Origin: Astropecten irregularis
Lineage: Eukaryota; Echinodermata; Asteroidea; Paxillosida; Astropectinidae
Length of the DNA stretch: 64,000 nucleotides
NCBI GenBank assembly: GCA_963971285.1
Contig: OZ020247.1
Coordinates: forward strand, 11,738,614 to 11,802,613
Direction of reading: 5' to 3'
A program made the translations under genes and the position numbers. Positions 4,641 through 55,434 of the stretch are shown one piece after another. The notes under the pieces were generated by a model. That model saw nothing but the letters and a program-made list of their open reading frames with translations, ran no database searches and was not told the origin of the DNA. The first letter of the stretch is position 1; every line of letters starts with the position of its first letter.

Positions 4641-4684
4641 AGCCTAAGTATTGAGGGTGAAATTCCAAACTCTCACTTAAAAAA

Positions 4685-7560: not shown

Positions 7561-7648
7561 AGTTTGCAAGAAAATTAGAAGAAGAAGTTAGTGGATCCAT
7601 TGAAGATTATGGCAGGCTGTCAAGGTCTGGATCTAAATCATCGCACAG
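7561..7648 (+). CDS. Exon-like module, copy 1 (outer, ancestral type)
   Basis: An 88-bp segment bounded by a pyrimidine-rich acceptor (gactttccag) and a donor (cacag/GTATGA). The reading frame is open and gives FARKLEEEVSGSIEDYGRLS followed by RSGSKSSHR: an acidic, helix-prone start and a basic serine/arginine tail. The split codons (two bases at each end, length not divisible by three) mean that joining two copies would break the frame. Ten further copies lie at 9347, 10050, 10606, 13264, 14241, 25684, 28173, 29150, 32025 and 53422. This one and 53422 have GGATCT (Ser-Gly-Ser), where the inner copies have CGATCT (Ser-Arg-Ser). Sequence after the donor (attcgacaccgggctcact...) is the apparent ancestor of the 192-bp satellite. 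I do not recognise the protein family. The constant splice sites make a real exon plausible but not proven. Confidence 0.5.
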
Positions 7649-7739
7649 GTATGATGTCTCAATCTTTTCCCAGATTCCAAAAAATCAAATTCGACACCGG
7701 GCTCACTCGAAATTTATCCGAATTTAGCATTGTTGTCAC

Positions 7740-10025
7740 GGGTCGAAAAGTCACAGTTTGCACCAGCTCGGGACCCGAGCGCCACGGGTCTCCGGGTCTC
7801 GAACCTGGGATTTCTGGTCCAGGTCTGGACCTGTTCCAAACTGCCACTTTTTTACACGTCAGTCAAAAATTAAAATTCTGCAGATCCGGGTCTCAAACCT
7901 GGGATTTCTGGCTCACAGGTCCAGACTTGTTCCAAGCTGCCACTTTTTGACACGTCAGTCAAAAATTAAAATTCTGCAGATTCGGGTCTCGAACCTGGGA
8001 TTTCAGGCTCACAGATCCAGACCTGTTCCAAACTGCCAGTTTTTGACACGCGAGTTGAAAAAAAAAATTTGTGCAGATTCGGGCCTCGAACCTGGGATTT
8101 CAGGCTCACAGGTCCGGACCTGTTCCAAACTGCCACTTGTTGACCCGCGAGTTGAAATATAAAAATTCTGCAGATTCGGGTCTCGAACCTGGGATTTCAG
8201 GCTCACAGGTCCGGACCTGTTCCAAACTGCCACTTCTTTACACTCAAGTTGAAAACATTTTTTTCCAGATTTGGGTCTCAAACCTAGGATTTCTGGCTCA
8301 CAGGTCCGAAACTGTTCCAAACTGCCACTTTTTAACACTCAAGTTGAAATTTTTTTTTTTCCAGATTCGGGTCTCAAACCTGGGATTTCTGGCTCACAGG
8401 GTCGGACCTGTTCCAAACTGCCACTTTTTTACACTCAAGTTGAAAATTTTTTTTTTCCAGATTCGGGTCTTAAACCTGGGATTTCAGGCTCACAGGTCCG
8501 GACTTGTTCCAAGAGTGCCGCTTTTTGACACGTCAGTCAAAAATTAAAATTCTGCAGCTCCGGGTCTCGAACCTGGGATTTCTGGCTCACAGGTCCGGAC
8601 TTGTTCCAAAAGTGCCACTTTTTGACACGTCAGTCAAAAATTAAAATTCTGCAGCTCCGGGTCTCAAACCTGGGATTTCTGGCTCACAGGTCCGAACTTG
8701 TTCCAAACTGCCACTTTTTGACCTGCAAGTTGAAATATAAAAATTCTGCAGATTCGGGTCTCGAACCTTGGATTTCAGGCTCACAGGTCCGGACCTGTTC
8801 CAAACTGCCACTTTTTGACACGCGAGTTGAAATATAAAAATTCTGCAGATTCGGGTCTCGAACCTGGGATTTCAGGCTCACAGGTCCGGACCTGTTCCAA
8901 ACTGCCACTTTTTGACCCGCGAGTTGAAATATAAAAATTCTGCAGATTCGGGTCTCGAACCTGGGATTTCAGGCTCACAGGTCCGGACCTGTTCCAAACA
9001 ACCACTTTTAGACACGTGAGTCCAAAAAAAAAAACCTTCTCCTCCGGGTCGCGAACCTTGGATTTCTGGCTCTCAGGTCCGGACCTGTTCCAAAAGTGCC
9101 ACTTTTTGACACGTCAGTCAAAAATTAAAATTCTGCAGCTCCGGGTCTCAAACCTGGGATTTCTGGCTCACAGGTCCAGACCTGTTCCAAACTGCCACTT
9201 TTTGACACGCGAGTTGAAATATAAAAATTGTGCAGATTTGGGTCTCGAACCTGGGATTTCAGGCTCATAGGTCCGGACCTGTTCCAAACTGCCACTTTTT
9301 GACACGTGTCTGAAAACTCATTTCATTCATGATTTTGACTTTTCAGAATTTGCAAGAAAACTAGAAGAAGAAGCTGTTGATCCATTGATGATTATGGCAG
9401 GCTGTCAAGGTCTGGATCTAAATCATCGCACAGGTATGTCTCAATCTTTTCCAAGATTTCCAAAAATCAAATTCGACACTATCGAAATATATCCGAATTC
9501 GGGTCTCGAACCTGGGATTTCTGGCTCACAGGTCCGGACCTGTTCCAAACTGCCACTTTTTGACACGCGAGTTGAAAAAAATTTTTTTTCCAGATTCGGG
9601 TCTCGAACCTGGGATTTCAGGCTCACGGACCTGTTCCAAACTGCCACTTTTTGACCCGCGAGTTTAAATATAAAAATTATGCAGATTCGGGTCTCGAACC
9701 TGGGATTTCAGGCTCACAGGGTCAGATCTGTTCCAAACTGCCACTTTTTGACCCGCGAGTTGAAATATAAAAATTCTGCAGATTCGGGTCTCGAACCTGG
9801 GATTTCAGGCTCACAGGTCCGGACCTGTTCCAAACTGCCACTTTTTGACACGCGAGTTGAAAAATAAATTCTGCAGATTCGGGTCTCGAACCTGGGATTT
9901 CAGGCTCACGTGTCTGGTCCGGACCTGTTCCAAACTGCCGCTTTTTGACCCGCGATTCGGGTCTCGAACCTGGGATTTTTGACTCTCAGGTCCAGACCTG
10001 TTCCAAACTGTCACTTTTTGACACG
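7740..10025 (+). repeat. Array B1, ~97-bp tandem repeat
   Basis: About 22 copies of a unit containing gggtctcgaacctgggattt, ggctcacaggtccggacctg, ttccaaactgccac and ttttgacacgcgagttgaaa, with a spacing of 95-98 bp (7793, 7889, 7985, 8082, 8178, and on to 9958). It is interrupted by module copy 2 at 9320-9480. On the minus strand each unit holds GGTTCGAGACC, an exact match to the tRNA B-box consensus GGTTCGANNCC, with a TGGCAGTTTGG A-box-like stretch upstream. Derivation from a tRNA-type SINE is therefore possible (inference). The unit shares a core with the 192-bp monomer in opposite orientation. Confidence 0.95.
9347..9433 (+). pseudogene. Exon-like module, copy 2 (frameshifted)
   Basis: Keeps the acceptor (gacttttcag) and the donor (cacag/GTATGT). 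It is 87 bp long: the text gaagctagtggatcc has become gaagctgttgatcc with one base lost, so the frame breaks after FARKLEEE. It sits inside array B1 and has outer-type flanks (tctgaaaactcatttcat). It looks like an early, decayed duplicate. Confidence 0.6.
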
Positions 10026-10049
10026 TGTCTGAAAACTCATTTCATTCAG

Positions 10050-10114
10050 CAGAAGCTGTTGATCCATTGACAATTATGGCCGGCTGTCAAGGTCTTAATC
10101 TAAATCATCGACAA
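10050..10114 (+). pseudogene. Exon-like module, copy 3 (5'-truncated)
   Basis: About 22 bp of the 5' part of the exon are missing: ttcattcag is followed directly by cagaagctgttgatcc. The donor has changed from cacaggtatg to gacaagtatg. It shares the gctgttgatcc lesion with copy 2, so the two are likely sisters. It marks the switch from the 97-bp array to the 192-bp array. Confidence 0.6.
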
Positions 10115-10605
10115 GTATGTCTCAATATTTTCCAAAATTCCAAAAAATCAAATTCGACCCCGGACTCGCTCGAAATATATAAAAATTTGACCTTATCATC
10201 ACGGGTCCAAAAGGTGGAGTTTTCACCAGGTCCGGACCTGTTGGCCAACGGGCAGTTTTCACCAGGTCCGGACCTGATAGCCAGGGGTCCCGAGTGCGAG
10301 ACCCGAAACCGCATAAGTTTTTTTTCCCAACACCAAAAAATCTAATCTATCATCCGACTTGCTTGATATATATCAAAATTTAGCATTATCATCACGGGTC
10401 CAAAAGTTGGAGTTTTCACCAGGTCCGGACCTGTTAGCCAACGGGCAGTTTTCACCAGGTCCGGACCTGACAGCCAGGGGTCCCGGGTGTGAGACCCAAA
10501 ACTGCATAATTTTTTTTCCTGGCGCTCAGGTCCGGACCTGTTCCAAACTGCCACTTTTTGATACTTGTCTGAAAACGTATTTCATATATTATTTTGACTC
10601 TTCAG

Positions 10606-10690
10606 AATTTGCGAGACTTGAAGAAGAAGCTAGTGGATCCATTGAAGATTATGGCAGGCTGTCAAGGTCTCGATCTAAATCATCGCACAG
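10606..10690 (+). CDS. Exon-like module, copy 4
   Basis: Acceptor gactcttcag and donor cacag/GTATGA are present. The exon is 85 bp because of an in-frame 3-bp loss (gcgagacttg for gcaagaaaacttg), giving FARLEEEASGSIEDYGRLS then RSRSKSSHR. First of the inner-type copies with Ser-Arg-Ser. It is preceded by a piece of the 97-bp unit (ggtccggacctgttccaaac) and followed by 192-bp monomers. Confidence 0.45.
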
Positions 10691-13263
10691 GTATGATGTC
10701 TCAATCTTTTCCCAGATTCCAAAAAATCTAATTCGACACCAGACTCACTCGAAATATATCTGATTTTGGCATTATTGTCACGTGTCAAATAGTTGGAGTT
10801 TTCACCAGGTCCGGACCTGTTAGCCAATGGCATGTTTTCACCAGGTCCGGACCTGACAGCCAGGGGTCCCGGGTGCCAGACCTTAAACGGCATAATTTTT
10901 TTTCCCAACACCAAAAAATCTTATCTGACATCAGACTCTCTTGAAATATATAAAAATTTGGCATTATCATCACGGGTCCAAAAGTTGGAGTTTTCACCAG
11001 GTCCGAACCTGTTAGCCAACGGGCAGTTTTCACCAGGTCCGGACGTGATAGCCAGGGGTCCCGAGTGCGAGACCCGAAACTGCATAATTTTTTTTCCTGA
11101 CACCAAAAAATCTAATCTATCATCGGACTTGCTTGAAATATATCAAAATTTAGCATTATCATCACTGGTCCAAAAGTTGGAGTTTTCACCAGGTCAGGAC
11201 CTGTTAGCCAACGGGCAGTTTTCACCAGGTCAGGACCTGACAGCCAGGGGTCCCGGGTGCGAGACCTGAAACGGCATAATTTGTTTTCCCAACACCCAAA
11301 AATCTTATCTGACATCAGACTCTCTTGAAATATATAAAAATTTGGCATTATCATCACGGGTCAAAAAGATGGAGTTTTCACCAGGTCCGAACCTGTGAGC
11401 CAACGGGCAGTTTTCACCAGGTCCGGACCTGACAGCCAGGGGTCCTGGGTGCGAGACCCGAAACGGCATCCCAACACCAAAAAATCTACTCTAACATCGG
11501 ACTCGCTTGAAATATGTAAAAATCATCACGGGTCCAAAAGATGGAGTTTTCACCAGGTCCGGACCTGTTAGCCAACGGGCAGTTTTCACCAGGTCCGGAC
11601 CTGACAGCCAGGGGTCCCGGGTGCAAGACCTGAAACGGCATAATTTTTTTTCCCAACACCTAAAAATCTTATCTGACATCAGACTCTTTTGAAATATATA
11701 AAAATTTGGCATTATCATCACGGGTCAAAAAGATTGAGTTTTCACCAGGTCCGGACCTGTTAGCCAACGGGCAGTTTTCACCAGGTCTGGACCTGATAGC
11801 CAGTGGTCCCGGGTGCGAGACCCGAAACGGCATAATTTTTTTCCCAACACCAAAAAATCTACTCTAACATCAGACTCGCTTGAAATATATAAAAATTTGG
11901 CATTATCATCACGGGTCAAAAAGTTGGAGTTTTCACCAGGTCCGAACCTGTTAGCCAACGGGCAGTTTTCACCAGGTCCGGACGTGATAGCCAGGGGTCC
12001 CGAGTGCGAGACCCGAAACTGCATAATTTTTTTTCCTGACACCAAAAAATCTAATCTATCATCGGACTTGCTTGAAATATATCAAAATTTAGCATTATCA
12101 TCACTGGTCCAAAAGTTGGAGTTTTCACCAGGTCCGGACCTGTTAGCCAACGGGCAGTTTTCACCAGGTCCGGACCTGACAGCCAGGGGTCCCGGGTGCG
12201 AGACCTGAAACGGCATAATTTTTTTTCCCAACACCCAAAAATCTTATCTTACATCAGACTCTCTTGAAATATATAAAAATTTGGCATTATCATCACGGGT
12301 CAAAAAGATGGAGTTTTCACCAGGTCCGAACCTGTGAGCCAACGGGCAGTTTTCACCAGGTCCGGACCTGACAGCCAGGGGTCCTGGGTGCGAGACCCGA
12401 AACGGCATCCCAACACCAAAAAATCTACTCTAACATCGGACTCGCTTGAAATATGTAAAAATTTGGCATTATCATCACGGGTCCAAAAGATGGAGTTTTC
12501 ACCAGGTCCGGACCTGTTAGCCAACGGGCAGTTTTCACCAGGTCCGGACCTGACAGCCAGGGGTCCCGGGTGCAAGACCTGAAACGGCATAATTTTTTTT
12601 CCCAACATCAAAAAATCTTATCTGACATCAGACTCTCTTGAAATATATACAAATTTGGCATTATCATCCAAGTCAAAAAGATGGAGTTTTCACCAGGTCC
12701 AGACCTGTTAGCCAACGGGCAGTTTTCACCAGGTCCGGACCTGATAGCCAGGGGTCCCGAGTGCGAGACCCGAAACCGCATAATTTTTTTTCCTGACACC
12801 AAAAAATCTAATCTATCATCGGACTTGCTTGAAATATATCAAAATTTAGCATTATCATCACTGGTCCAAAAGTTGGAGTTTTCACCAGGTCCGGACCTGT
12901 TAGCCAACGGGCAGTTTTCACCAGGTGCTTCCCTGATAGCCAGGGGTCCCGGGTGCGAGACCTGAAACGGCATAATTTTTTTTCCCAACACCAAAAAATC
13001 TTATCTGACATCAGACTCTCTTGAAATTTATAAAAACTTGGCATTATCATCACTGGTCCAAAAGTTGGAGTTTTCACCAGGTCCGGACCTGTTGGCCAAC
13101 GGACAGTTTTCACCAGGTCCGGACCTGATAGCCAGGGGTCCCGGGTGTGAGACCCAAAACTGCATAATTTTTTTTCCTGGCGCTCAGGTCCGGACCTGTT
13201 CCAAACTGCCACTTTTTGATACTTGTCTGAAAACGTATTTCATATATTATTTTGACTCTTCAG

Positions 13264-13351
13264 AATTTGCAAGAAAACTTGAAGAAGAAGCTAGTGGATC
13301 CATTGAAGATTATGGCAGGCTGTCAAGGTCTCGATCTAAATCATCGCACAG
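13264..13351 (+). CDS. Exon-like module, copy 5
   Basis: Full 88 bp, open, with acceptor gactcttcag and donor cacag/GTATGA. The peptide is FARKLEEEASGSIEDYGRLS then RSRSKSSHR. Downstream, the block ctcgaaatata is doubled, a feature shared only with the copy at 28173, its partner in the 14,909-bp offset duplication. Confidence 0.5.
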
Positions 13352-14240
13352 GTATGATGTCTCAATCTTTTCCCAGATTCCAAAAAATCTAATTCGACAC
13401 CAGACTCACTCGAAATATACTCGAAATATATCTGATTTTGGCATTATTGTCACGTGTCAAATAGTTGGAGTTTTCACCAGGTCCGGACCTGTTAGCCAAC
13501 GGGCAGTTTTCACCAGGTCCGGACCTGACAGCCAGTGGTCCTGGGTGCGAGACCTGAAACGGCAGAATATATTTTCCCAACACCAAAAAATCTTCTCTAC
13601 CATCGGACTGGCTTGAAATATATAAAAATTTGGCATTATCATCACGGGTCCAAAAGTTGGAGTTTTCACCAGGTCCGGACCTGTTAGCCAACGGGCAGTT
13701 TTCACCAGGTCCGGACCTGACAGCCAGTGTTCCCGGGTGCAAGACCTGAAACGGCAGAATATATTTTCCCAACACCAAAAAATCTACTCTAACATCGGAC
13801 TCGCTTGAAATATATAAAAATTTGGCATTATCATCACGGGTCCAAAAGTTGGAGTTTTCACCAGGTCCGGACCTGTTAGCCAACGGGCAGTTTTCACCAG
13901 GTCCGGACCTGATAGCCAGGGGTCCCGGGTGCGAGACCCGAAACGGCATAATTTTCTTTTCCCAACACCAAAAAATCTAATCTGACATCGGACTCGCTTG
14001 AAATATATAAAAATTTGGCATTATCATGACGGGTCAAATAGTTGGAGTTTTCACCAGGTCCGGACCTGTTAGCCAACGGGCAGTTTTCACCAGGTCCGGA
14101 CCTGACAGCCAGGGGTCCCGGGTGTGAGACCCAAAACTGCATAATTTTTTTTCCTGGCGCTCAGGTCCGGACCTGTGCCAAACTGCCACTTTTTTATACT
14201 TGTCTGAAAACGTATTTCATATATTATTTTGACTCTTCAG

Positions 14241-14328
14241 AATTCGCAAGAAAACTTGAAGAAGAAGCTAGTGGATCCATTGAAGATTATGGCAGGCTGT
14301 CAAGGTCTCGATCTAAATCATCGCACAG
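14241..14328 (+). CDS. Exon-like module, copy 6
   Basis: Full 88 bp and open. It has the silent variant aattcgcaag (inner copies elsewhere have aatttgcaag) and an upstream tttttatacttg variant. Both are shared with 29150 and 32025, so these three form one lineage. Acceptor and donor are intact. Confidence 0.5.
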
Positions 14329-16121
14329 GTATGATGTCTCAATCTTTTCCCAGATTCCAAAAAATCTAATTCGACACCAGACTCACTCGAAATATATCTG
14401 ATTTTGGCATTATTGTCACATGTCGAATAGTTGGAGTTTTCACCAGGTCCGGACCTGACAGCCATGGGTCCCGGGTGCGAGACCTGAAACGGCATAATTT
14501 TTTTTCCCAACACCAAAAAATCTTATCTGACATCAGACTCTCTTGAAATATATAAAAATTTGGCATTATCATCACGGGTCACAAAGATGGAGTTTTCACT
14601 AGGTCCGACCCAGTTAGCCAACAGGCAGTTTTCACCATGTCCGGACCTGATAGCCAGGGGTCCCGGGTGCGAGACCCGAAACCGCATAATTTTTTTTCCC
14701 AACACCAAAAAATCTTATCTTACATCAGACTCTCTTGAAATATATACAAATTTGGCATTATCATCACAGGTCCAAAAGTTGGAGTTTTCACCATGTCCAG
14801 ACCTGTTAGCCAACGGGCAGTTTTCACCAGGTCCGGACCTGATAGCCAGGGGTCCCGGGTGCGAGACCCGAAACCGCATAATTTTTTTTCCCAACACCAA
14901 AAAATCTTATCTTACATCAGACTCTCTTGAAATATATAAAAATTTGGCATTATCATCACAGGTCCAAAAGTTGGAGTTTTCACCATGTCCAGACCTGTTA
15001 GCCAACGGGCAGTTTTCACCAGGTCCGGACCTGATAGCCAGGGGTCCCGGGTGCGAGACCCGAAACGGCATAATTTTTTTCCAAACACCAAAAAATCTAC
15101 TCTAACATCGGACTCGCTTGAAATATATAAAAATTTGGCATTATCATCACGGGTCAAAAAGATGGGGTTTTCACCAGGTCCGGACCTGTTAGCCAACGGG
15201 CAGTTTTCACCAGGTCCGGACCTGATAGCCAGGGGTCCCGAGTGCGAGACCCGAAACGGCATAATTTTTTTTCCCAACACCAAAAAATCTTTTCTGACAT
15301 CAGTCTCTCTTGAAATATATAAAAATTTGGCATTATCATCACGGGTCAAAAAGATGGAGTTTTCACCAGGTCCGGACCTGTTAGCCAACGAGCAGTTTTC
15401 ACCAGGTCCGGACCTGATAGCCAGGGGTCCCGGGTGCGAGACCCGAAACGGCATAATTTTTTTCCCAACACCAAAAAATCTACTCTAACATCGGACTCGC
15501 TTGAAATATATGAAAATTTGGCATTATCATCACGGGTCAAAAAGATGGAGTTTTCACCAGGTCCGGACCTGTTAGCCAACGGGTAGTTTTCACCAGGTCC
15601 GGACCTGACAGCCAGGGGTCCCGGGTGCAAGACCTGAAAAGGCATAATTTTTTTTCCCAACACCAAAAAATCTTATCTGACATCAGACTCTCTTGAAATA
15701 TATAAAAATTTGGCATTATCATCACGGGTCAAAAAGATCGAGTTTTCACCAGGTCCGGACCTGTTAGCCAACGGGCAGTTTTCACAAGGTCCGGACCTGA
15801 CAGCAGGGGTCCCGGGTGCGAGACCCGAAACGGCATAATTTTTTTCCCAACACCAAAAAATCTACTCTAACATCGGACTCGGGTGCGAGACCTGAAACAG
15901 CATAATTTTTTTTCCCAACACCAAAAAATCTTATCTTACATCAGACTCTCTTGAAATATATAAAAATTTGGCTTTATCATCACGGGTCAAAAAGATGGAG
16001 TTTTCACCAGGTCCGGACCTGTTAGCCAACGGGCAGTTTTCACCAGGTCCGGACCTGACAGCAGGGGTCCCGGGTGCGAGACCTGAAACAGCATAATTTG
16101 TTTTCCCAACACCAAAAAATC

Positions 16122-19100
16122 TTATCTGACATCAGACTCTCTTGAAATATATAACAATTTGGCATTATCATCACTGGTCAAAAAGATGTAGTTTTCATCA
16201 GGTCCGGACCTGTTAGCCAACGGGCAGTTTTCACCAGGTCCGGACCTGATAGCCAGGGGTCCCGGGTACGAGACCCGAAACGGCATAATTTTTTTTCCCA
16301 ACACCAAAAAATCTACTCTAACATCGGACTCGCTTGAAATATATAAAAATTTGGCATTATCATCACGGGTCAAAAAGTTGGAGTTTTCACCAGGTCCGGA
16401 CCTGTTAGCCAACGGGCAGTTTTCACCAGGTCCGGACCTGACAGCCAGGGGTCCCGGGTGCAAGACCTGAAAAGGCATAATTTTTTTTCCCAACACCAAA
16501 AAATCTTATCTGACATCAGACTCTCTTGAAATATATAAAAATTTGGCATCATCATCACAGGTCAAAAAGATGAAGTTTTCACCCGGTCCGGACCTGTTAG
16601 CCAACGGGCAGTTTTCACCAGGTCCGGACCTGATAGCCAAGGGTCCCGGGTGCGAGACCCGAAACGGCATAATTTTTTTTCCAAACACCAAAAAATCTAC
16701 TCTAACAACGGACTCGCTTGAAATATATAAAAATTTGGCATTATCATCACTGGTCCAAAAGTTGGAGTTTTCACCAGGTCCGGACCTGTTAGCCAACAGG
16801 CAGTTTTCACCAGGTCCGGACCTGATAGCCAGGGGTCCCGGGTGCGAGACCTGAAACAGCATAATTTTTTTTCCCAACACCAAAAAATCTTATCTTACAT
16901 CAGACTCTCTTGAAATATATAAAAATTTGGCATTATCATCACGGGTCCAAAAGTTGGAGTTTTCACCAGGTCCGGACCTGTTAGCCAAAGGGCAGTTTTC
17001 ACCAGGTCCGGACCTGACAGCCAGGGGTCCCGGGTGCAAGACCTGAAACAGCATAATTTTTTTTCCCAACACCAAAAAATCTTATCTGACATCAGACTCT
17101 CTTGAAATATATAAAAATTTGGCATTATCATGACGGGTCAAAAAGATGGAGTTTTCACCAGGTCCGGACATGTTAGCCAACGGGCAGTTTTCACCAGGTC
17201 CGGACCTGACAGCAGGGGTCCCGTGTGCAAGACCTGAAACAGCATAATTTTTTTTCCCAACACCAAAAAATCTTATCTTACATCAGACTCTCTTGAAATA
17301 TATAAAAATTTGGCATTATCATCACAGGTCAAAAAGATGGAGTTTTCACCAGGTCCGGACCTGATAGCCAACGGGCAGTTTTCACCAGGTCCGGACCTGA
17401 TAGCCAGGGGTCCCGTGTGCAAGACCCGAAACCGCATAATTTTTTTTCCTGACACCAAAAAATCTAATCTAACATCGGACTCGCTTGAAATATATACAAA
17501 TTTGGCATTATCATCACGGGTCCAAAAGTTGGAGTTTTCACCAGGTCCGGACCTGTTAGCCAACGGGCAGTTTTCACCAGGTCCAGACCTGATAGCCAGG
17601 GGTCTCGGGTGCGAGACCCGAAACGGCATCATTTTTTTTCCCAACACCAAAAAATCTTATCTGACATCAGTCTCTCTTGAAATATATAAAAATTTGGCAT
17701 TATCATCACGGGTCAAAAAGATGGAGTTTTCACCAGGTCCGGACCTGTTAGCCAACGGGCAGTTTTCACCAGGTCCGGACCTGATAGCCAGGGGTCCCGG
17801 GTACGAGACCCGAAACGGCATAATTTTTTTTCCCAACACCAAAAAATCTACTCTAACATCGGACTCGCTTGAAATATATAAAAATTTGGCATTATCATCA
17901 CGGGTCAAAAAGTTGGAGTTTTCACCAGGTCCGGACCTGTTAGCCAACGGGCAGTTTTCACCAGGTCCGGACCTGACAGCCAGGGGTCCCGGGTGCAAGA
18001 CCTGAAAAGGCATAATTTTTTTTCCCAACACCAAAAAATCTTATCTGACATCAGACTCTCTTGAAATATATAAAAATTTGGCATCATCATCACAGGTCAA
18101 AAAGATGGAGTTTTCACCCGGTCCGGACCTGTTAGCCAACGGGCAGTTTTCACCAGGTCCGGACCTGATAGCCAAGGGTCACGGGTGCGAGACCGGAAAC
18201 GGCATAATTTTTTTTCCAAACACCAAAAAATCTACTCTAACAACGGACTCGCTTGAAATATATAAAAATTTGGCATTATCATCACTGGTCCAAAAGTTGG
18301 AGTTTTCACCAGGTCCGGACCTGTTAGCCAACAGGCAGTTTTCACCAGGTCCGGACCTGATAGCCAGGGGTCCCGGGTGCAAGACCCGAAACGGCATAAT
18401 TTTTTTTCCCAACACCAAAGAATCTTATCTGACATCAGTCTCTCTTGAAATATATAAAAATTTGGCATTATCATCACGGGTCAAAAAGATGGAGTTTTCA
18501 CCAGGTCCGGACCTGTTAGCCAACGGGCAGTTTTCACCAGGTCTGGACCTGATAGCCAGGGGTCCCGGGTGCGAGACCCGAAACGGCATAATTTTTTTTC
18601 CCAACACCAAAAAATCTACTCTAACATCGGATTCGCTTGAAATATATAAAAATTTGGCATTATCATCACGGGTCAAAAAGTTGGAGTTTTCACCAGGTCC
18701 GGACCTGATAGCCAGGGGTCCTGGGTGCGAGACCCGAAACGGCATAATTTTTTTTCCAAACACCAAAAAATCTACTCTAACAACGGACTCGCTTGAAATA
18801 TATAAAAATTTGGCATTATCATCACTGGTCCAAAAGTTGGAGTTTTCACCAGGTCCGGACCTGTTAGCCAACAGGCAGTTTTCACCAGGTCCGGACCTGA
18901 TAGCCAGGGGTCCCGGGTGCGAGACCCGAAACGGCATAATTTGTTTTCCCAACACCAAAGAATCTTATCTGACATCAGTCTCTCTTGAAATATATAAAAA
19001 TTTGGCATTATCATCACGGGTCAAAAAGATGGAGTTTTCACCAGGTCCGGACCTGTTAGCCAACGGGCAGTTTTCACCAGGTCTGGACCTGATAGCCAGG

Positions 19101-19300
19101 GGTCCCGGGTGCGAGACCCGAAACGGCATAATTTTTTTTCCCAACACCAAAAAATCTAATCTGACATCGGATTCGCTTGAAATATATAAAAATTTGGCAT
19201 TATCATGACGGGTCAAATAGTTGGAGTTTTCACCAGGTCCGGACCTGTTAGCCAACGGGCAGTTTTCACCAGGTCCGGACCTGACAGCCAGGGGTCCCTG
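16122..19300 (+). repeat. Segmental duplication block Q, first copy
   Basis: Recurs at 33906-37090 (offset 17,784) and 37944-41120 (offset 21,822). The last two copies are 4,038 bp apart, which is 21 monomers plus 6 bp, and the third copy continues in register with 19300-21900. Singular marks such as the agatgtagttttcatc unit and the gtgtgcaagacc unit travel with every copy. Very few differences are visible (for example one base near 38860), so the duplications are young. Confidence 0.85.
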
Positions 19301-25683: not shown

Positions 25684-25771
25684 AATTTGCAAGAAAACTT
25701 GAAGAAGAAGCTAGTGGATCCATTGAAGATTATGGCAGGCTGTCAAGGTCTCGATCTAAATCATCGCACAG
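25684..25771 (+). CDS. Exon-like module, copy 7
   Basis: Full 88 bp, open, inner type (Ser-Arg-Ser), acceptor and donor intact. It closes the first large run of 192-bp monomers. Just upstream is the composite lead-in cctggcgctcaggtccggac that precedes every inner copy. Confidence 0.5.
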
Positions 25772-42130: not shown

Positions 42131-45100
42131 TTATCTGACATCAGACTCTCTTGAAATATATAAAAATTTGGCATCATCATCACAGGTCAAAAAGATGGAG
42201 TTTTCACCCGGTCCGGACCTGTTAGCCAACGGGCAGTTTTCACCAGGTCCGGACCTGATAGCCAAGGGTCCCGGGTGCGAGACCCGAAACGGCATAATTT
42301 TTTTTCCAAACACCAAAAAATCTACTCTAACAACGGACTCGCTTGAAATATATAAAAATTTGGCATTATCATCACTGGTCCAAAAGTTGGAGTTTTCACC
42401 AGGTCCGGACCTGTTAGCCAACAGGCAGTTTTCACCAGGTCCGGACCTGATAGCCAGGGGTCCCGGGTGCAAGACCCGAAACGGCTTAATTTTTTTTCCC
42501 AACACCAAAGAATCTTATCTGACATCAGTCTCTCTTGAAATATATAAAAATTTGGCATTATCATCACGGGTCAAAAAGATGGAGTTTTCACCAGGTCCGG
42601 ACCTGTTAGCCAACGGGCAGTTTTCACCAGGTCTGGACCTGATAGCCAGGGGTCCCGGGTGCGAGACCCGAAACGGCATAATTTTTTTTCCCAACACCAA
42701 AAAATCTACTCTAACATCGGATTCGCTTGAAATATATAAAAATTTGGCATTATCATCACGGGTCAAAAAGTTGGAGTTTTCACCAGGTCCGGACCTGATA
42801 GCCAGGGGTCCTGGGTGCGAGACCCGAAACGGCATAATTTTTTTTCCAAACACCAAAAAATCTACTCTAACAACGGACTCGCTTGAAATATATAAAAATT
42901 TGGCATTATCATCACTGGTCCAAAAGTTGGAGTTTTCACCAGGTCCGGACCTGTTAGCCAACAGGCAGTTTTCACCAGGTCCGGACCTGATAGCCAAGGG
43001 TCCCGGGTGCGAGACCCGAAACGGCATAATTTTTTTTCCCAACACCAAAGAATCTTATCTGACATCAGTCTCTCTTGAAATATATAAAAATTTGGCATTA
43101 TCATCACGGGTCAAAAAGATGGAGTTTTCACCAGGTCCGGACCTGTTAGCCAACGGGCAGTTTTCACCAGGTCTGGACCTGATAGCCAGGGGTCCCGGGT
43201 GCGAGACCCGAAACGGCATAATTTTTTTTCCCAACACCAAAAAATCTAATCTGACATCGGATTCGCTTGAAATATATAAAAATTTGGCATTATCATGACG
43301 GGTCAAATAGTTGGAGTTTTCACCAGGTCCGGACCTGTTAGCCAACGGGCAGTTTTCACCAGGTCCGGACCTGACAGCCAGGGGTCCCTGGTGAGAGACC
43401 CGAAACGGCATAATTTTTTCTCCACACTCCAAAAAATCTAATCTGACATCGGACTCGCTTGAAATATATAAAAATTTGGCATTATCATCACGGGTCAAAA
43501 AGATGGAGTTTTCACCAGGTCCGGACCTGTTAGCCAACGGGCAGTTTTCACCAGGTCCAGACCTGATAGCCAGGGGTCTCGGGTGCGAGACCCGAAACGG
43601 CATCATTTTTTTTCCCAACACCAAAAAATCTTATCTGACATCAGTCTCTCTTGAAATATATAAAAATTTGGCATTATCATCACGGGTCAAAAAGATGGAG
43701 TTTTCACCAGGTCCGGACCTGTTAGCCAACGGGCAGTTTTCACCAGGTCCGGACCTGATAGCCAGGGGTCCCGGGTACGAGACCCGAAACGGCATAATTT
43801 TTTTTCCCAACACCAAAAAATCTACTCTAACATCGGACTCGCTTGAAATATATAAAAATTTGGCATTATCATCACGGGTCAAAAAGTTGGAGTTTTCACC
43901 AGGTCCGGACCTGTTAGCCAACGGGCAGTTTTCACCAGGTCCGGACCTGATAGCCAGGGGTCCCGGGTGCGAGACCCGAAACGGCATAATTTGTTTTCCC
44001 AACACCAAAGAATCTTATCTGACATCAGTCTCTCTTGAAATATATAAAAATTTGGCATTATCATCACGGGTCAAAAAGATGGAGTTTTCACCAGGTCCGG
44101 ACCTGTTAGCCAACGGGCAGTTTTCACCAGGTCTGGACCTGATAGCCAGGGGTCCCGGGTGCGAGACCCGAAACGGCATAATTTTTTTTCCCAACACCAA
44201 AAAATCTAATCTGACATCGGATTCGCTTGAAATATATAAAAATTTGGCATTATCATGACGGGTCAAATAGTTGGAGTTTTCACCAGGTCCGGACCTGTTA
44301 GCCAAGGGGCAGTTTTCACCAGGTCCGGACCTGACAGCCAGGGGTCCCTGGTGAGAGACCCGAAACGGCATAATTTTTTCTCCACACTCCAAAAAATCTA
44401 ATCTGACATCGGACTCGCTTGAAATATATAAAAATTTGGCATTATCATCACGGGTCAAAAAGATGGAGTTTTCACCAGGTCCGGACCTGTTAGCCAACGG
44501 GCAGTTTTCACCAGGTCCAGACCTGATAGCCAGGGGTCTCGGGTGCGAGACCCGAAACGGCATCATTTTTTTTCCCAACACCAAAAAATCTTATCTGACA
44601 TCAGTCTCTCTTGAAATATATAAAAATTTGGCATTATCATCACGGGTCAAAAAGATGGAGTTTTCACCAGGTCCGGACCTGTTAGCCAACGGGCAGTTTT
44701 CACCAGGTCCGGACCTGATAGCCAGGGGTCCCGGGTACGAGACCCGAAACGGCATAATTTTTTTTCCCAACACCAAAAAATCTACTCTAACATCGGACTC
44801 GTTTGATATATATAAAAATTTGGCATTATCATCACGGGTCAAAAAGTTGGAGTTTTCACCAGGTCCGGACCTGTTAGCCAACGGGCAGTTTTCACCAGGT
44901 CCGGACCTGACAGCCAGGGGTCCCGGGTGCAAGACCTGAAAAGGCATAATTTTTTTTCCCAACACCAAAAAATCTTATCTGACATCAGACTCTCTTGAAA
45001 TATATAAAAATTTGGCATCATCATCACAGGTCAAAAAGATGGAGTTTTCACCCGGTCCGGACCTGTTAGCCAACGGGCAGTTTTCACCAGGTCCGGACCT

Positions 45101-48100
45101 GATAGCCAAGGGTCCCGGGTGCGAGACCCGAAACGGCATAATTTTTTTTCCAAACACCAAAAAATCTACTCTAACAACGGACTCGCTTGAAATATATAAA
45201 AATTTGGCATTATCATCACTGGTCCAAAAGTTGGAGTTTTCACCAGGTCCGGACCTGTTAGCCAACAGGCAGTTTTCACCAGGTCCGGACCTGATAGCCA
45301 GGGGTCCCGGGTGCAAGACCCGAAACGGCATAATTTTTTTTCCCAACACCAAAGAATCTTATCTGACATCAGTCTCTCTTGAAATATATAAAAATTTGGC
45401 ATTATCATCACGGGTCAAAAAGATGGAGTTTTCACCAGGTCCGGACCTGTTAGCCAACGGGCAGTTTTCACCAGGTCTGGACCTGATAGCCAGGGGTCCC
45501 GGGTGCGAGACCCGAAACGGCATAATTTTTTTTCCCAACACCAAAAAATCTACTCTAACATCGGATTCGCTTGAAATATATAAAAATTTGGCATTATCAT
45601 CACGGGTCAAAAAGTTGGAGTTTTCACCAGGTCCGGACCTGATAGCCAGGGGTCCTGGGTGCGAGACCCGAAACGGCATAATTTTTTTTCCAAACACCAA
45701 AAAATCTACTCTAACAACGGACTCGCTTGAAATATATAAAAATTTGGCATTATCATCACTGGTCCAAAAGTTGGAGTTTTCACCAGGTCCGGACCTGTTA
45801 GCCAACAGGCAGTTTTCACCAGGTCCGGACCTGATAGCCAAGGGTCCCGGGTGCGAGACCCGAAACGGCATAATTTTTTTTCCCAACACCAAAGAATCTT
45901 ATCTGACATCAGTCTCTCTTGAAATATATAAAAATTTGGCATTATCATCACGGGTCAAAAAGATGGAGTTTTCACCAGGTCCGGACCTGTTAGCCAACGG
46001 GCAGTTTTCACCAGGTCTGGACCTGATAGCCAGGGGTCCCGGGTGCGAGACCCGAAACGGCATAATTTTTTTTCCCAACACCAAAAAATCTAATCTGACA
46101 TCGGATTCGCTTGAAATATATAAAAATTTGGCATTATCATGACAGGTCAAATAGTTGGAGTTTTCACCAGGTCCGGACCTGTTAGCCAACGGGCAGTTTT
46201 CACCAGGTCCGGACCTGACAGCCAGGGGTCCCTGGTGAGAGACCCGAAACGGCATAATTTTTTCTCCACACTCCAAAAAATCTAATCTGACATCGGACTC
46301 GCTTGAAATATATAAAAATTTGGCATTATCATCACGGGTCAAAAAGATGGAGTTTTCACCAGGTCCGGACCTGTTAGCCAACGGGCAGTTTTCACCAGGT
46401 CCAGACCTGATAGCCAGGGGTCTCGGGTGCGAGACCCGAAACGGCATCATTTTTTTTCCCAACACCAAAAAATCTTATCTGACATCAGTCTCTCTTGAAA
46501 TATATAAAAATTTGGCATTATCATCACGGGTCAAAAAGATGGAGTTTTCACCAGGTCCGGACCTGTTAGCCAACGGGCAGTTTTCACCAGGTCCGGACCT
46601 GATAGCCAGGGGTCCCGGGTACGAGACCCGAAACGGCATAATTTTTTTTCCCAACACCAAAAAATCTACTCTTACATCGGACTCGCTTGAAATATATAAA
46701 AATTTGGCATTATCATCACGGGTCAAAAAGTTGGAGTTTTCACCAGGTCCGGACCTGTTAGCCAACGGGCAGTTTTCACCAGGTCCGGACCTGACAGCCA
46801 GGGGTCCCGGGTGCAAGACCTGAAAAGGCATAATTTTTTTTCCCAACACCAAAAAATCTTATCTGACATCAGACTCTCTTGAAATATATAAAAATTTGGC
46901 ATCATCATCACAGGTCAAAAAGATGGAGTTTTCACCCGGTCCGGACCTGTTAGCCAACGGGCAGTTTTCACCAGGTCCGGACCTGATAGCCAAGGGTCCC
47001 GGGTGCGAGACCCGAAACGGCATAATTTTTTTTCCAAACACCAAAAAATCTACTCTAACAACGGACTCGCTTGAAATATATAAAAATTTGGCATTATCAT
47101 CACGGGTCAAAAAGATGGAGTTTTCACCAGGTCCGGACCTGTTAGCCAACGGGCAGTTTTCACCAGGTCCGGACCTGATAGCCAGGGGTCCCGGGTACGA
47201 GACCCGAAACGGCATAATTTTTTTTCCCAACACCAAAAAATCTACTCTAACATCGGACTCGCTTGAAATATATAAAAATTTGGCATTATCATCACGGGTC
47301 AAAAAGTTGGAGTTTTCACCAGGTCCGGACCTGTTAGCCAACGGGCAGTTTTCACCAGGTCCGGACCTGATAGCCAGGGGTCCCGGGTGCGAGACCCGAA
47401 ACGGCATAATTTGTTTTCCCAACACCAAAGAATCTTATCTGACATCAGTCTCTCTTGAAATATATAAAAATTTGGCATTATCATCACGGGTCAAAAAGAT
47501 GGAGTTTTCACCAGGTCCGGACCTGTTAGCCAACGGGCAGTTTTCACCAGGTCTGGACCTGATAGCCAGGGGTCCCGGGTGCGAGACCCGAAACGGCATA
47601 ATTTTTTTTCCCAACACCAAAAAATCTAATCTGACATCGGATTCGCTTGAAATATATAAAAATTTGGCATTATCATGACGGGTCAAATAGTTGGAGTTTT
47701 CACCAGGTCCGGACCTGTTAGCCAAGGGGCAGTTTTCACCAGGTCCGGACCTGACAGCCAGGGGTCCCTGGTGAGAGACCCGAAACGGCATAATTTTTTC
47801 TCCACACTCCAAAAAATCTAATCTGACATCGGACTCGCTTGAAATATATAAAAATTTGGCATTATCATCACGGGTCAAAAAGATGGAGTTTTCACCAGGT
47901 CCGGACCTGTTAGCCAACGGGCAGTTTTCACCAGGTCCAGACCTGATAGCCAGGGGTCTCGGGTGCGAGACCCGAAACGGCATCATTTTTTTTCCCAACA
48001 CCAAAAAATCTTATCTGACATCAGTCTCTCTTGAAATATATAAAAATTTGGCATTATCATCACGGGTCAAAAAGATGGAGTTTTCACCAGGTCCGGACCT

Positions 48101-51100
48101 GTTAGCCAACGGGCAGTTTTCACCAGGTCCGGACCTGATAGCCAGGGGTCCCGGGTACGAGACCCGAAACGGCATAATTTTTTTTCCCAACACCAAAAAA
48201 TCTACTCTAACATCGGACTCGTTTGATATATATAAAAATTTGGCATTATCATCACGGGTCAAAAAGTTGGAGTTTTCACCAGGTCCGGACCTGTTAGCCA
48301 ACGGGCAGTTTTCACCAGGTCCGGACCTGACAGCCAGGGGTCCCGGGTGCAAGACCTGAAAAGGCATAATTTTTTTTCCCAACACCAAAAAATCTTATCT
48401 GACATCAGACTCTCTTGAAATATATAAAAATTTGGCATCATCATCACAGGTCAAAAAGATGGAGTTTTCACCCGGTCCGGACCTGTTAGCCAACGGGCAG
48501 TTTTCACCAGGTCCGGACCTGATAGCCAAGGGTCCCGGGTGCGAGACCCGAAACGGCATAATTTTTTTTCCAAACACCAAAAAATCTACTCTAACAACGG
48601 ACTCGCTTGAAATATATAAAAATTTGGCATTATCATCACTGGTCCAAAAGTTGGAGTTTTCACCAGGTCCGGACCTGTTAGCCAACAGGCAGTTTTCACC
48701 AGGTCCGGACCTGATAGCCAGGGGTCCCGGGTGCAAGACCCGAAACGGCATAATTTTTTTTCCCAACACCAAAGAATCTTATCTGACATCAGTCTCTCTT
48801 GAAATATATAAAAATTTGGCATTATCATCACGGGTCAAAAAGATGGAGTTTTCACCAGGTCCGGACCTGTTAGCCAACGGGCAGTTTTCACCAGGTCTGG
48901 ACCTGATAGCCAGGGGTCCCGGGTGCGAGACCCGAAACGGCATAATTTTTTTTCCCAACACCAAAAAATCTACTCTAACATCGGATTCGCTTGAAATATA
49001 TAAAAATTTGGCATTATCATCACGGGTCAAAAAGTTGGAGTTTTCACCAGGTCCGGACCTGATAGCCAGGGGTCCTGGGTGCGAGACCCGAAACGGCATA
49101 ATTTTTTTTCCAAACACCAAAAAATCTACTCTAACAACGGACTCGCTTGAAATATATAAAAATTTGGCATTATCATCACTGGTCCAAAAGTTGGAGTTTT
49201 CACCAGGTCCGGACCTGTTAGCCAACAGGCAGTTTTCACCAGGTCCGGACCTGATAGCCAAGGGTCCCGGGTGCGAGACCCGAAACGGCATAATTTTTTT
49301 TCCCAACACCAAAGAATCTTATCTGACATCAGTCTCTCTTGAAATATATAAAAATTTGGCATTATCATCACGGGTCAAAAAGATGGAGTTTTCACCAGGT
49401 CCGGACCTGTTAGCCAACGGGCAGTTTTCACCAGGTCTGGACCTGATAGCCAGGGGTCCCGGGTGCGAGACCCGAAACGGCATAATTTTTTTTCCCAACA
49501 CCAAAAAATCTAATCTGACATCGGATTCGCTTGAAATATATAAAAATTTGGCATTATCATGACAGGTCAAATAGTTGGAGTTTTCACCAGGTCCGGACCT
49601 GTTAGCCAACGGGCAGTTTTCACCAGGTCCGGACCTGACAGCCAGGGGTCCCTGGTGAGAGACCCGAAACGGCATAATTTTTTCTCCACACTCCAAAAAA
49701 TCTAATCTGACATCGGACTCGCTTGAAATATATAAAAATTTGGCATTATCATCACGGGTCAAAAAGATGGAGTTTTCACCAGGTCCGGACCTGTTAGCCA
49801 ACGGGCAGTTTTCACCAGGTCCAGACCTGATAGCCAGGGGTCTCGGGTGCGAGACCCGAAACGGCATCATTTTTTTTCCCAACACCAAAAAATCTTATCT
49901 GACATCAGTCTCTCTTGAAATATATAAAAATTTGGCATTATCATCACGGGTCAAAAAGATGGAGTTTTCACCAGGTCCGGACCTGTTAGCCAACGGGCAG
50001 TTTTCACCAGGTCCGGACCTGATAGCCAGGGGTCCCGGGTACGAGACCCGAAACGGCATAATTTTTTTTCCCAACACCAAAAAATCTACTCTTACATCGG
50101 ACTCGCTTGAAATATATAAAAATTTGGCATTATCATCACGGGTCAAAAAGTTGGAGTTTTCACCAGGTCCGGACCTGTTAGCCAACGGGCAGTTTTCACC
50201 AGGTCCGGACCTGACAGCCAGGGGTCCCGGGTGCAAGACCTGAAAAGGCATAATTTTTTTTCCCAACACCAAAAAATCTTATCTGACATCAGACTCTCTT
50301 GAAATATATAAAAATTTGGCATCATCATCACAGGTCAAAAAGATGGAGTTTTCACCCGGTCCGGACCTGTTAGCCAACGGGCAGTTTTCACCAGGTCCGG
50401 ACCTGATAGCCAAGGGTCCCGGGTGCGAGACCCGAAACGGCATAATTTTTTTTCCAAACACCAAAAAATCTACTCTAACAACGGACTCGCTTGAAATATA
50501 TAAAAATTTGGCATTATCATCACTGGTCCAAAAGTTGGAGTTTTCACCAGGTCCGGACCTGTTAGCCAACAGGCAGTTTTCACCAGGTCCGGAACTGATA
50601 GCCAGGGGTCCCGGGTGCAAGACCCGAAACGGCATAATTTTTTTTCCCAACACCAAAGAATCTTATCTGACATCAGTCTCTCTTGAAATATATAAAAATT
50701 TGGCATTATCATCACGGGTCAAAAAGATGGAGTTTTCACCAGGTCCGGACCTGTTAGCCAACGGGCAGTTTTCACCAGGTCTGGACCTGATAGCCAGGGG
50801 TCCCGGGTGCGAGACCCGAAACGGCATAATTTTTTTTCCCAACACCAAAAAATCTACTCTAACATCGGATTCGCTTGAAATATATAAAAATTTGGCATTA
50901 TCATCACGGGTCAAAAAGTTGGAGTTTTCACCAGGTCCGGACCTGATAGCCAGGGGTCCTGGGTGCGAGACCCGAAACGGCATAATTTTTTTTCCAAACA
51001 CCAAAAAATCTACTCTAACAACGGACTCGCTTGAAATATATAAAAATTTGGCATTATCATCACTGGTCCAAAAGTTGGAGTTTTCACCAGGTCCGGACCT

Positions 51101-52270
51101 GTTAGCCAACAGGCAGTTTTCACCAGGTCCGGACCTGATAGCCAAGGGTCCCGGGTGCGAGACCCGAAACGGCATAATTTTTTTTCCCAACACCAAAGAA
51201 TCTTATCTGACATCAGTCTCTCTTGAAATATATAAAAATTTGGCATTATCATCACGGGTCAAAAAGATGGAGTTTTCACCAGGTCCGGACCTGTTAGCCA
51301 ACGGGCAGTTTTCACCAGGTCTGGACCTGATAGCCAGGGGTCCCGGGTGCGAGACCCGAAACGGCATAATTTTTTTTCCCAACACCAAAAAATCTAATCT
51401 GACATCGGATTCGCTTGAAATATATAAAAATTTGGCATTATCATGACAGGTCAAATAGTTGGAGTTTTCACCAGGTCCGGACCTGTTAGCCAACGGGCAG
51501 TTTTCACCAGGTCCGGACCTGACAGCCAGGGGTCCCTGGTGAGAGACCCGAAACGGCATAATTTTTTCTCCACACTCCAAAAAATCTAATCTGACATCGG
51601 ACTCGCTTGAAATATATAAAAATTTGGCATTATCATCACGGGTCAAAAAGATGGAGTTTTCACCAGGTCCGGACCTGTTAGCCAACGGGCAGTTTTCACC
51701 AGGTCCAGACCTGATAGCCAGGGGTCTCGGGTGCGAGACCCGAAACGGCATCATTTTTTTTCCCAACACCAAAAAATCTTATCTGACATCAGTCTCTCTT
51801 GAAATATATAAAAATTTGGCATTATCATCACGGGTCAAAAAGATGGAGTTTTCACCAGGTCCGGACCTGTTAGCCAACGGGCAGTTTTCACCAGGTCCGG
51901 ACCTGATAGCCAGGGGTCCCGGGTACGAGACCCGAAACGGCATAATTTTTTTTCCCAACACCAAAAAATCTACTCTAACATCGGACTCGCTTGAAATATA
52001 TAAAAATTTGGCATTATCATCACGGGTCAAAAAGTTGGAGTTTTCACCAGGTCCGGACCTGTTAGCCAACGGGCAGTTTTCACCAGGTCCGGACCTGACA
52101 GCCAAGGGTCCCGGGTGCGAGACCCGAAACGGCATAATTTTTTTTCCCAACACCAAAGAATCTTATCTGACATCAGTCTCTCTTGAAATATATAAAAATT
52201 TGGCATTATCATCACGGGTCAAAAAGATGGAGTTTTCACCAGGTCCGGACCTGTTAGCCAACGGGCAGTT
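42131..52270 (+). repeat. Higher-order repeat run, second domain
   Basis: Successive 1,884-bp units begin at 42131, 44975, 48395 and 50279, with 960-bp and 1,536-bp deletion forms at 44015 and 46859. This domain is the late counterpart of 20309-25030 but longer. Markers such as gacaggtcaaatag (near 46142, 49562, 51446) are shared only by neighbouring blocks here, showing amplification after the two domains separated. Confidence 0.85.
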
Positions 52271-53421
52271 TTCACCAGGTCCGGACCTGACAGCCAGGGG
52301 TCCCGGGTGCAAGACCTGAAACGGCATAATTTTCTTTTCCCAACACCAAAAAATCTAATCTGACATCGGACTCGCTTGAAATATATAAAAATTTGGCATT
52401 ATCATGACGGGTCAAATAGTTGGAGTTTTCACCAGGTCCGGACCTGTTAGCCAACGGGCAGTTTTCACCAGGTCCGGACCTGACAGCCAGGGGTCCCGGG
52501 TGCGAGACCCGAAACGGCATAATTTTTTCTCCACACTCCAAAAAATCTAATCTGACATCGGACTCGCTTGAAATATATAAAAATTTGGCGTTATCATGAC
52601 GGTTCAAAAAGTTGGAGTTTTCACCAGGTCCGGACCTGTTAGCCAACGAGCAGTTTTCACCAGGTCCGGACCTGATAGCCAGGGGTCCCGGGTGCGAGAC
52701 CCGAAACGGCATAATTTTATTTCCCAACACCAAAAAATCTTATCTGACATCAGTCTCTCTTGAAATATATAAAAATTTGGCATTATCATCACGGGTCAAA
52801 AAGATTGAGTTTTCACCAGGTCCGGACCTGTTAGCCAACGGGCAGTTTTCTCCAGGTCCGGACCTGATAGCCAACGAGCAGTTTTCACCAGGTCCGGACC
52901 TGATAGCCAGGGGTCCCGGGTGCGAGACCCTAAACGGCATAATTTTTTTTCAGACTCCAAAAAATCTAATCTGATTTCGGACTCGCTTGAAATATATAAA
53001 AATTTAGTATTATCATCACGGGTCAAAAAGTTTGAGTTTTCACCAGGTCCGGACTTGATAGCAAACAGGCAGTTTTCACCAGGTCCGGATCTGATAGCTA
53101 GGGGTCCCGAATGCGAGACCCAAAACGGCTTAATTTTTTTTCCCAACACCAAAAAATCTAATCTGACATCAGACTCTCTTGAAATATATCAAAATTTGGC
53201 ATTATCATCATGGGTCAAAAAGTGGATGTTTTCACCAGGTCCGGACCTGATAGCCAACGGCCAGTTTTCACTAGGTCCGGACCTGATAGCCAGGGGTCCC
53301 GGGTGCGAGACCCGAAACCGCATAATTTTTTTTCCTGGCGCTCAGGTCGGGACCTGTTCCAAACTGCCACTTTTTGACACGTGTCTGAAAACTTATTTCA
53401 TATATAATTTTGTCTTTTCAG

Positions 53422-53509
53422 AATTTGCTAGAAAACTAGAAAAAGAAGCTAGTGGATCCATTGAAGATTATGACAGGCTGTCAAGGTCTGGATCTAAATC
53501 ATCGCACAG
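53422..53509 (+). CDS. Exon-like module, copy 11 (outer, ancestral type)
   Basis: 88 bp, open: FARKLEKEASGSIEDYDRLS then RSGSKSSHR. Acceptor gtcttttcag, donor cacag/GTATGA. Like copy 1 it has GGATCT (Ser-Gly-Ser), and its downstream text (tcaaattcgacacc, caccagctcaggacccgag) matches copy 1 rather than the monomers. It ends the satellite domain. If any copy belongs to a working gene, copies 1 and 11 are the best candidates. Joined directly to the next exon at 54211, it would not keep the sphingomyelinase-like frame. Confidence 0.5.
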
Positions 53510-55369: not shown

Positions 55370-55434
55370 GTCTTCCACTGTTGCACCAGCCGGTCTGCAC
55401 CTGTTTTGTGCTCTAGAGCTCTAGAGGCTCTAGA

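What the first reader, a model, noticed from the sequence alone, without database searches (positions are those of the whole stretch)
7561..53509. An 88-bp exon-like module, splice sites included, dispersed in eleven copies through a 46-kb satellite
Copies at 7561, 9347, 10050, 10606, 13264, 14241, 25684, 28173, 29150, 32025 and 53422. Ten keep a pyrimidine-rich acceptor and a GTATG donor, and nine keep the open frame beginning FARKLEEE. Retained splice sites and frames next to freely drifting satellite suggest either selection or very recent spread. Because 88 is not a multiple of three, a transcript could use only one copy without shifting frame, so the set could act as mutually exclusive exons, or be passengers.
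Basis: partly seen in the sequence, partly recalled or inferred. Interest (0 to 1): 0.8.

Follow-up and report, generated by a model that had tools for sequence, protein, structure and literature searches.

The report
Exon-like passenger copied by a satellite
A short exon-like piece sits beside a decayed fragment of a lipid-cutting enzyme gene and has been copied, with the repetitive DNA around it, hundreds of times in an echinoderm-like genome, apparently as a passenger and not as a set of working alternative exons.

Summary
The eleven copies are real. They sample a family with 422 near-matches in the genome (reversed control 0) on at least seven contigs. The window lies in a 1.8-Mb cluster on contig C10 with 13 places of a decayed exon (B) of an SMPD2-like (sphingomyelin phosphodiesterase 2) gene; 12 of the 13 are preceded by clusters of the 88-bp module in a capped list. 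One intact gene lies on C16; its matching intron lacks the module. The 192-bp satellite monomer is homologous to sequence starting 10-16 bp after the module's donor, so the satellite was probably seeded there and carried the module along. Within the window copies spread by block duplication: 3151 bp of module plus satellite is duplicated exactly. Changes in the module fit neutrality (12 synonymous, 35 nonsynonymous, 4 stop; expected 12.7, 35.6, 2.7), and frameshifted copies are multiplied too. Joined to exon B, the FARKLEEE frame stops after 16 further codons. Mutually exclusive exons are not supported; passengers are. In sets found by module similarity the module diverges less than its flanks; I attribute this mainly to ascertainment. 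Whether the module was ever a true exon stays open: no parent was found.

The parts
7561..7648 (+). exon-like module copy 1 (88 bp, FARKLEEEV variant; five C10 places share its score and frame length)
9347..9433 (+). copy 2 (87 bp, frameshifted)
10048..10110 (+). copy 3 (truncated; original acceptor stretch and 5' end lost)
10606..10690 (+). copy 4 (85 bp, one codon lost)
13264..13351 (+). copy 5 (88 bp)
14241..14328 (+). copy 6 (88 bp)
25684..25771 (+). copy 7 (88 bp, identical to copy 5 with 316 bp of surroundings)
28173..28260 (+). copy 8 (in an exact 3151-bp duplicate of the block with copy 5)
29150..29237 (+). copy 9 (in the same exact duplicate; equals copy 6)
32025..32112 (+). copy 10 (equals copies 6 and 9, with 475 bp exact)
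53422..53509 (+). copy 11, the one nearest the decayed SMPD2-like exon B
7793..10022 (+). 97-bp satellite
   Evidence: Tandem Repeats Finder
10140..53335 (+). 192/384-bp satellite, homologous to the sequence starting 10-16 bp 3' of the module's donor
11692..14842 (+). 3151-bp stretch (two modules plus satellite) repeated exactly at 26601-29751
53705..54087 (+). GACTTGTGAT minisatellite, related (about 75%) to one in the A-B intron of the intact C16 gene
54211..54431 (+). decayed exon B of an SMPD2-like gene (in-frame stops and a split frame)
55203..55390 (+). decayed exon C of the SMPD2-like gene (C-terminal part, in-frame stops)

Best explanation
The 88-bp pieces are passengers. A 3' fragment of an SMPD2-like gene, already broken and lying downstream of an exon-like 88-bp module, was duplicated to at least six contigs. 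On C10 the sequence just 3' of the module's donor grew into a 192-bp satellite by repeated local duplication (unequal exchange, replication slippage or similar). Blocks of a few kb that happened to contain the module were copied with it, and the larger arrangement was duplicated to about 13 places. Shown: homology of monomer and module flank, exact block duplication of module and satellite together, 13 decayed exon-B places on C10, an intact C16 gene, a neutral codon pattern. Inferred: the molecular process, the order of events, and that the copies make no protein.
For: Monomer homologous to the donor flank even on C22 (score 55; maximum of 200 shuffles 16), where the flank probe hits only at the modules in the fetched 40 kb. 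3151 bp of module plus satellite duplicated exactly. Exons B and C homologous to a C16 gene that matches sphingomyelin phosphodiesterase 2 (PDB 8j2f, E 3.4e-34) and PF03372 (5.5e-10). Of 96 exon-B matches only the C16 one covers the whole query without a stop. Neutral codon pattern over 45 haplotypes. Frame-broken copies at more than one place on C9, C10 and C15. On C10 alone the module differs as much as its downstream flank (4.6 v 4.4%, 21 pairs).
Against: Fewer derived states per site in the module than in its flanks: in fully fetched regions 25 in 88 sites against 43 in 85 (Fisher p 0.003); between contigs 6.4% (8.1% without the search core) against 12.5 and 13.0%. Most of these loci were found by module similarity and truncated copies were left out. 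In C10 the upstream flank (12.1%) differs more than the module (4.6%), and so it does in exon-B-found loci between C19 and C10 (module 4.5%, downstream 5.9%, upstream 12.5%). In pair 14241 v 32025 the module and 475 bp around it are identical while the 500 bp downstream hold 25 mismatches. No expression data were available.
Confidence: 0.85

Rival explanations
1. The copies are a cluster of mutually exclusive exons of a live gene; each transcript picks one.
For: Original acceptor stretch in 10 of 11 and GTATG in 11 of 11 window copies; 88 bp is not a multiple of three.
Against: Six of eleven encode the identical peptide. The next recognisable downstream exon is decayed in this unit. No upstream partner exon was recognised (SMPD2 exon A not found by tblastn in the fetched stretches). 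Codon changes are neutral. Frameshifted copies are multiplied as well.
Confidence: 0.03
2. The module is or was a true exon of a lost or divergent gene that came to lie in front of the SMPD2-like 3' fragment; the chimaera may still be transcribed where the ratio is about one module to one exon B (C9, C19). This concerns origin and is compatible with the passenger reading on C10.
For: The nine C9 module places that I fetched each lie 0.6-3 kb upstream of an exon-B match on the same strand; 6 of 7 fetched C19 exon-B loci hold the complete module. Exon-like structure in only 22 of 3000 shuffles of the module.
Against: No parent found: three degenerate codon patterns gave 0 hits, the Pfam scan gave none, and it is absent from the C16 A-B intron. 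Every exon-B match outside C16 that covers the first half of the query has a stop. The patterns would miss a parent that uses the array's codons or a diverged peptide.
Confidence: 0.4
3. The module was never an exon: a stretch of repeat unit that looks like one by chance.
For: A 29-codon open frame is common by chance (my estimate, about one in four per frame); a second frame is also open in many copies; neutral codon pattern.
Confidence: 0.45
4. The DNA of the module is itself kept for a non-coding reason (for example a protein-binding or RNA-level function).
For: Lower divergence than flanks in the module-found sets and than the upstream flank in others.
Against: No difference from flanks within C19 in exon-B-found loci, nor from the downstream flank on C10; ascertainment explains part of the rest.
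Confidence: 0.08

Closest known systems
Satellite DNA with higher-order repeats
   Same: Head-to-tail monomers, block duplication, near-identity of blocks.
   Different: Some blocks carry an exon-like segment, and the monomer can be traced to that segment's flank.
SMPD2 / sphingomyelin phosphodiesterase 2 genes (Exo_endo_phos fold)
   Same: Exons B and C downstream of the array are 3' pieces of such a gene; an intact one is on C16.
   Different: The window copies have stops and a split frame; no exon A in the fetched stretches; the 88-bp module is not in the C16 A-B intron.
Satellite-filled introns of Drosophila Y genes kl-3 and kl-5 (PMC6508621; passages seen)
   Same: Satellite lies between exon-like pieces.
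   Different: Those genes are expressed and make mRNA; the passages speak of no multiplied exons. Here the fragment is decayed and the exon-like piece is multiplied.
Mutually exclusive exon arrays such as Dscam (recalled)
   Same: Many same-strand exon-like copies between flanking sequence.
   Different: Little sequence diversity among copies, no live partner exon found, no codon constraint.
Gene-bearing macrosatellites such as D4Z4/DUX4 (PMC12376486, search listing and start of abstract only)
   Same: Gene-related sequence in a tandem array.
   Different: No intact gene was recognised in the window's unit; its open frames were not searched one by one.

Membership tests
Satellite DNA (tandem, homogenised) | long head-to-tail array of similar monomers | tested here: met
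   192/384-bp array 10140-53335 and 97-bp array 7793-10022; 206 monomer hits, mean conservation 0.953
Satellite DNA (tandem, homogenised) | block (higher-order) duplication | tested here: met
   blocks of up to 8.2 kb at 97% or more; 3151 bp exact
Mutually exclusive exons | copies offer different sequences | tested here: not met
   6 of 11 copies give the same peptide
Mutually exclusive exons | common downstream exon open in the right frame | tested here: not met
   exon B stops the FARKLEEE frame 16 codons after the junction codon (read from the frame listed)
Mutually exclusive exons | coding constraint on the copies | tested here: not met
   12 syn, 35 nonsyn, 4 stop against 12.7, 35.6, 2.7 expected
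Mutually exclusive exons | spliced transcripts that use one copy | not testable with these tools
   no RNA data
SMPD2-like gene fragment (pseudogene) | homology of downstream exons to SMPD2 | tested here: met
   exons B and C match the C16 gene, which matches sphingomyelin phosphodiesterase 2 in PDB 8j2f; exon B alone gave no such match and only a weak Pfam one (E 0.15)
SMPD2-like gene fragment (pseudogene) | disabling changes | tested here: met
   every match outside C16 that covers the first half of the exon-B query has a stop, and the second half continues in another frame
SMPD2-like gene fragment (pseudogene) | the 88-bp module is one of the gene's exons | tested here: not met
   no homologue in the C16 A-B intron (12.5; shuffled maximum 21) nor in the 7.2 kb fetched there (17.5; shuffled maximum 20); the 5' part of the gene was not fetched

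The most novel reading that the evidence does not exclude
The module is a real orphan exon of a chimaeric transcript unit (new 5' exon plus SMPD2-like 3' remnant) that is still transcribed from many units, so that a satellite has become a bank of hundreds of usable, nearly identical splice-competent exons acting at RNA level.
Probability: 0.06. Interest if true: 0.65.

Novelty: new member of a known kind. Interest (0 to 1): 0.3.

Why it matters
It is a worked case of how a satellite can be born beside a gene fragment: loci where the flank is found only at the module (C22, C19), a locus with several modules but no 192-bp array in the fetched stretches (C15), and the large array (C10) coexist in one genome. 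It also warns that kept splice sites and frames inside a young array can reflect recent copying and need not mean selection.

Tried and rejected
Looked for a parent gene of the module with three degenerate codon patterns that avoid some of the array's own codons: 0 hits each; a diverged parent or one using the array's codons would be missed, and the protein search scored only 150 of 456 candidates. A Pfam scan of the 30-aa peptide gave nothing. Tested whether the module lies in the C16 A-B intron: no. Tested chance exon-likeness with dinucleotide shuffles: 22 of 3000. A C8 site, first thought a possible parent, holds two copies in a 97-bp-type satellite. Literature searches (PMC open-licence papers only) listed nothing that I recognised as this repeat family or as an SMPD2-derived satellite; of the listed papers I saw only the PMC8210747 outline and PMC6508621 passages. 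Assembly error as the source of the copies was not tested.
Full report
CHECK OF THE OBSERVATION. Eight of 11 are 88 bp; 9347 is 87 bp, 10606 is 85 bp, and 10050 has a deletion that removes the original acceptor stretch and about 19 bases of the module. The original acceptor stretch is kept in 10 of 11 and GTATG in 11 of 11. Nine of 11 keep the original frame to the donor; 7 of 11 do so and begin exactly FARKLEEE. The array is two satellites, about 97 bp (7793-10022) and 192/384 bp (10140-53335).

GENOME CONTEXT. The window is C10:11738614-11802613 of a 475.7-Mb genome in 168 contigs. A 35-nt core of the module with up to 3 mismatches occurs 422 times (296 forward, 126 reverse; reversed control 0); the listed places, which are only the first, lie on C8, C9, C10, C12, C15, C19 and C22. 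A protein search scored 150 of 456 candidates: 140 on C10 between 10.77 and 12.59 Mb, all on the + strand, and 10 on C15, C19 and C22. The mitochondrial COX1 on C168 reads by genetic code table 9, with 4 of 4 AAA codons at positions that are Asn in the best PDB match, which fits an echinoderm.

WHAT LIES NEXT TO IT. Downstream of the array are two decayed exons (54211-54431 and 55203-55390). Of 96 matches to exon B in the genome one, on C16, covers the whole query without a stop. The joined translation of four exon pieces of that C16 gene (edges judged by eye) matches sphingomyelin phosphodiesterase 2 (PDB 8j2f, E 3.4e-34) and PF03372 (5.5e-10). Exon B alone gave no such PDB match and a Pfam match below the cut-off (E 0.15). 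Every match outside C16 that covers the first half of exon B has a stop, and the second half continues in another frame. The minisatellite before exon B is related to one in the C16 intron. The C16 A-B intron shows no trace of the module (12.5 against a shuffled maximum of 21). On C10 there are 13 exon-B places; in the capped list, 12 are preceded by a module cluster of 2-44 copies, one has none, and no module follows the last. These counts are lower bounds: the window's cluster counts 7 there and has 11, and one search shows a module about 0.8 kb before one exon B that is not in the list. On C9 and C19 the ratio is near one to one: the nine C9 module places that I fetched each have an exon-B match within 3 kb downstream, and 6 of 7 fetched C19 exon-B loci hold the complete module. 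The seventh C19 locus and the single C9 locus of that set show none within the 1.5 kb fetched upstream.

WHERE THE SATELLITE CAME FROM. Starting 10-16 bp after the module's donor, the flank aligns to the 192-bp monomer at 67-84% in three window copies and 73-77% on C22, C19 and C15. On C22 the score is 55 against a maximum of 16 in 200 shuffles, and there the flank probe hits only at the two modules in the fetched 40 kb. So the monomer is most simply read as an expansion of the sequence that flanks the module. A 97-bp-type satellite lies upstream of the module on C22, C19 and C15 (70-88%) and around it on C8; the window's first copy (7561) has none upstream (score 8).

HOW THE COPIES SPREAD AND WHETHER THEY ARE KEPT. 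In the window, 11692-14842 is repeated exactly at 26601-29751: 3151 bp with two modules and much satellite. Around 14241 v 32025 and 29150 v 32025 the exact stretch is 475 bp, and around 25684 v 13264 and v 28173 it is 316 bp, each with the module inside; beyond it there is more change, for example 25 mismatches in the 500 bp downstream of 14241 v 32025 against 2 upstream in the gapped alignment. In pairs 25684 v 32025 and 10606 v 32025 the module has 1 and 2 mismatches and the aligned flanks (150 bp each side) 7 and 8. So in the youngest block the module is no better kept than the satellite. In the fully fetched regions 33 of 39 module copies are complete and 6 truncated; one more is cut by the edge of a stretch and one weak 36-nt match was left out. 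Of the 33 complete ones 6 have a shifted frame and 2 a stop. Over 45 distinct haplotypes (46 less one with a chimaeric upstream flank; from 77 rows, some of them the same place fetched twice; truncated copies left out) the module has 51 derived states: 12 synonymous, 35 nonsynonymous, 4 stop, against 12.7, 35.6 and 2.7 expected without selection; codon positions 17, 18, 16. In the fully fetched subset of 21 haplotypes the figures are 8, 14 and 3 against 6.7, 17.2 and 1.1. In loci fetched through exon B, so not chosen by the module, the module differs by 0.8% within C19 (flanks 0.7 and 1.3%) and by 4.5% between C19 and C10 (flanks 12.5 and 5.9%); all 5 derived states change the amino acid.

RESULTS AGAINST THIS READING. 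In sets found by module similarity the module is less diverged than its flanks: 6.4% (8.1% without the search core) against 12.5 and 13.0% between contigs; 25 derived states in 88 sites against 43 in 85 in fully fetched regions, Fisher p 0.003. On C10 alone it equals the downstream flank (4.6 v 4.4%) but not the upstream one (12.1%). I attribute this mainly to how the loci were found, to the leaving out of truncated copies and to satellite junctions upstream, but cannot exclude weak non-coding constraint. Exon-like structure appears in only 22 of 3000 shuffles of the module, so the resemblance to an exon may be genuine history; yet no parent was found.

CODING TEST. Read in the FARKLEEE frame into the window's exon B, the sequence continues, after the junction codon, VIAVVLSRPRTTRSPV and stops (16 codons, read from the open frame listed). 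Since 88 is one more than a multiple of three, the module cannot be inserted before exon B without changing the SMPD2 frame. This, the identity of six of eleven copies and the neutral codon pattern speak against mutually exclusive exons.

CONCLUSION. Passenger copies of an exon-like module in a satellite that grew from the module's own flank beside an SMPD2-like gene fragment. The exact recombination process is inferred.

Noticed in passing
window 7793-53335, 347 places: Both satellites share the perfect 14-bp palindrome CAGGTCCGGACCTG (347 exact copies in the window, 0 outside the two arrays). Its conservation is 0.98 against a mean of 0.95 over 206 monomer hits, but other 14-mers of the monomer are kept better (up to 0.997). 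It may be a shared origin or a binding site.
   Followed up: partly
window 1-5575: A separate 219-bp satellite with open frames of up to 178 aa; related repeats lie downstream of exon B on C22.
   Followed up: partly
window 10140-53335: Because 192 is a multiple of three, the satellite holds open frames of up to 400 aa on the + strand and 273 aa on the - strand; these look like genes but need not be.
   Followed up: no
window 6455-6583: Two short tandem arrays with mutually reverse-complementary units (CAACTCGTACGCCGAC and, shortened, GTCGGCGTACGAGTTG) face each other.
   Followed up: no
L022 about 1150-1240: Sequence resembling a tRNA-derived element in the decayed unit on C19, between exons B and C (seen by eye, not tested).
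   Followed up: no
G000:C131:32162-33484 and G000:C25:9951047-9952018: A COX1 match with a 552-aa frame and no TGA on C131, possibly a bacterial contaminant contig, and a COX1 match with 7 TGA on C25 that looks like a nuclear copy of mitochondrial DNA.
   Followed up: no
window 55203-55312 and G000:C19:7293879-7293988: The 110 bases of exon C are identical between C10 and C19 although the surrounding aligned blocks are 90-93% identical.
   Followed up: no
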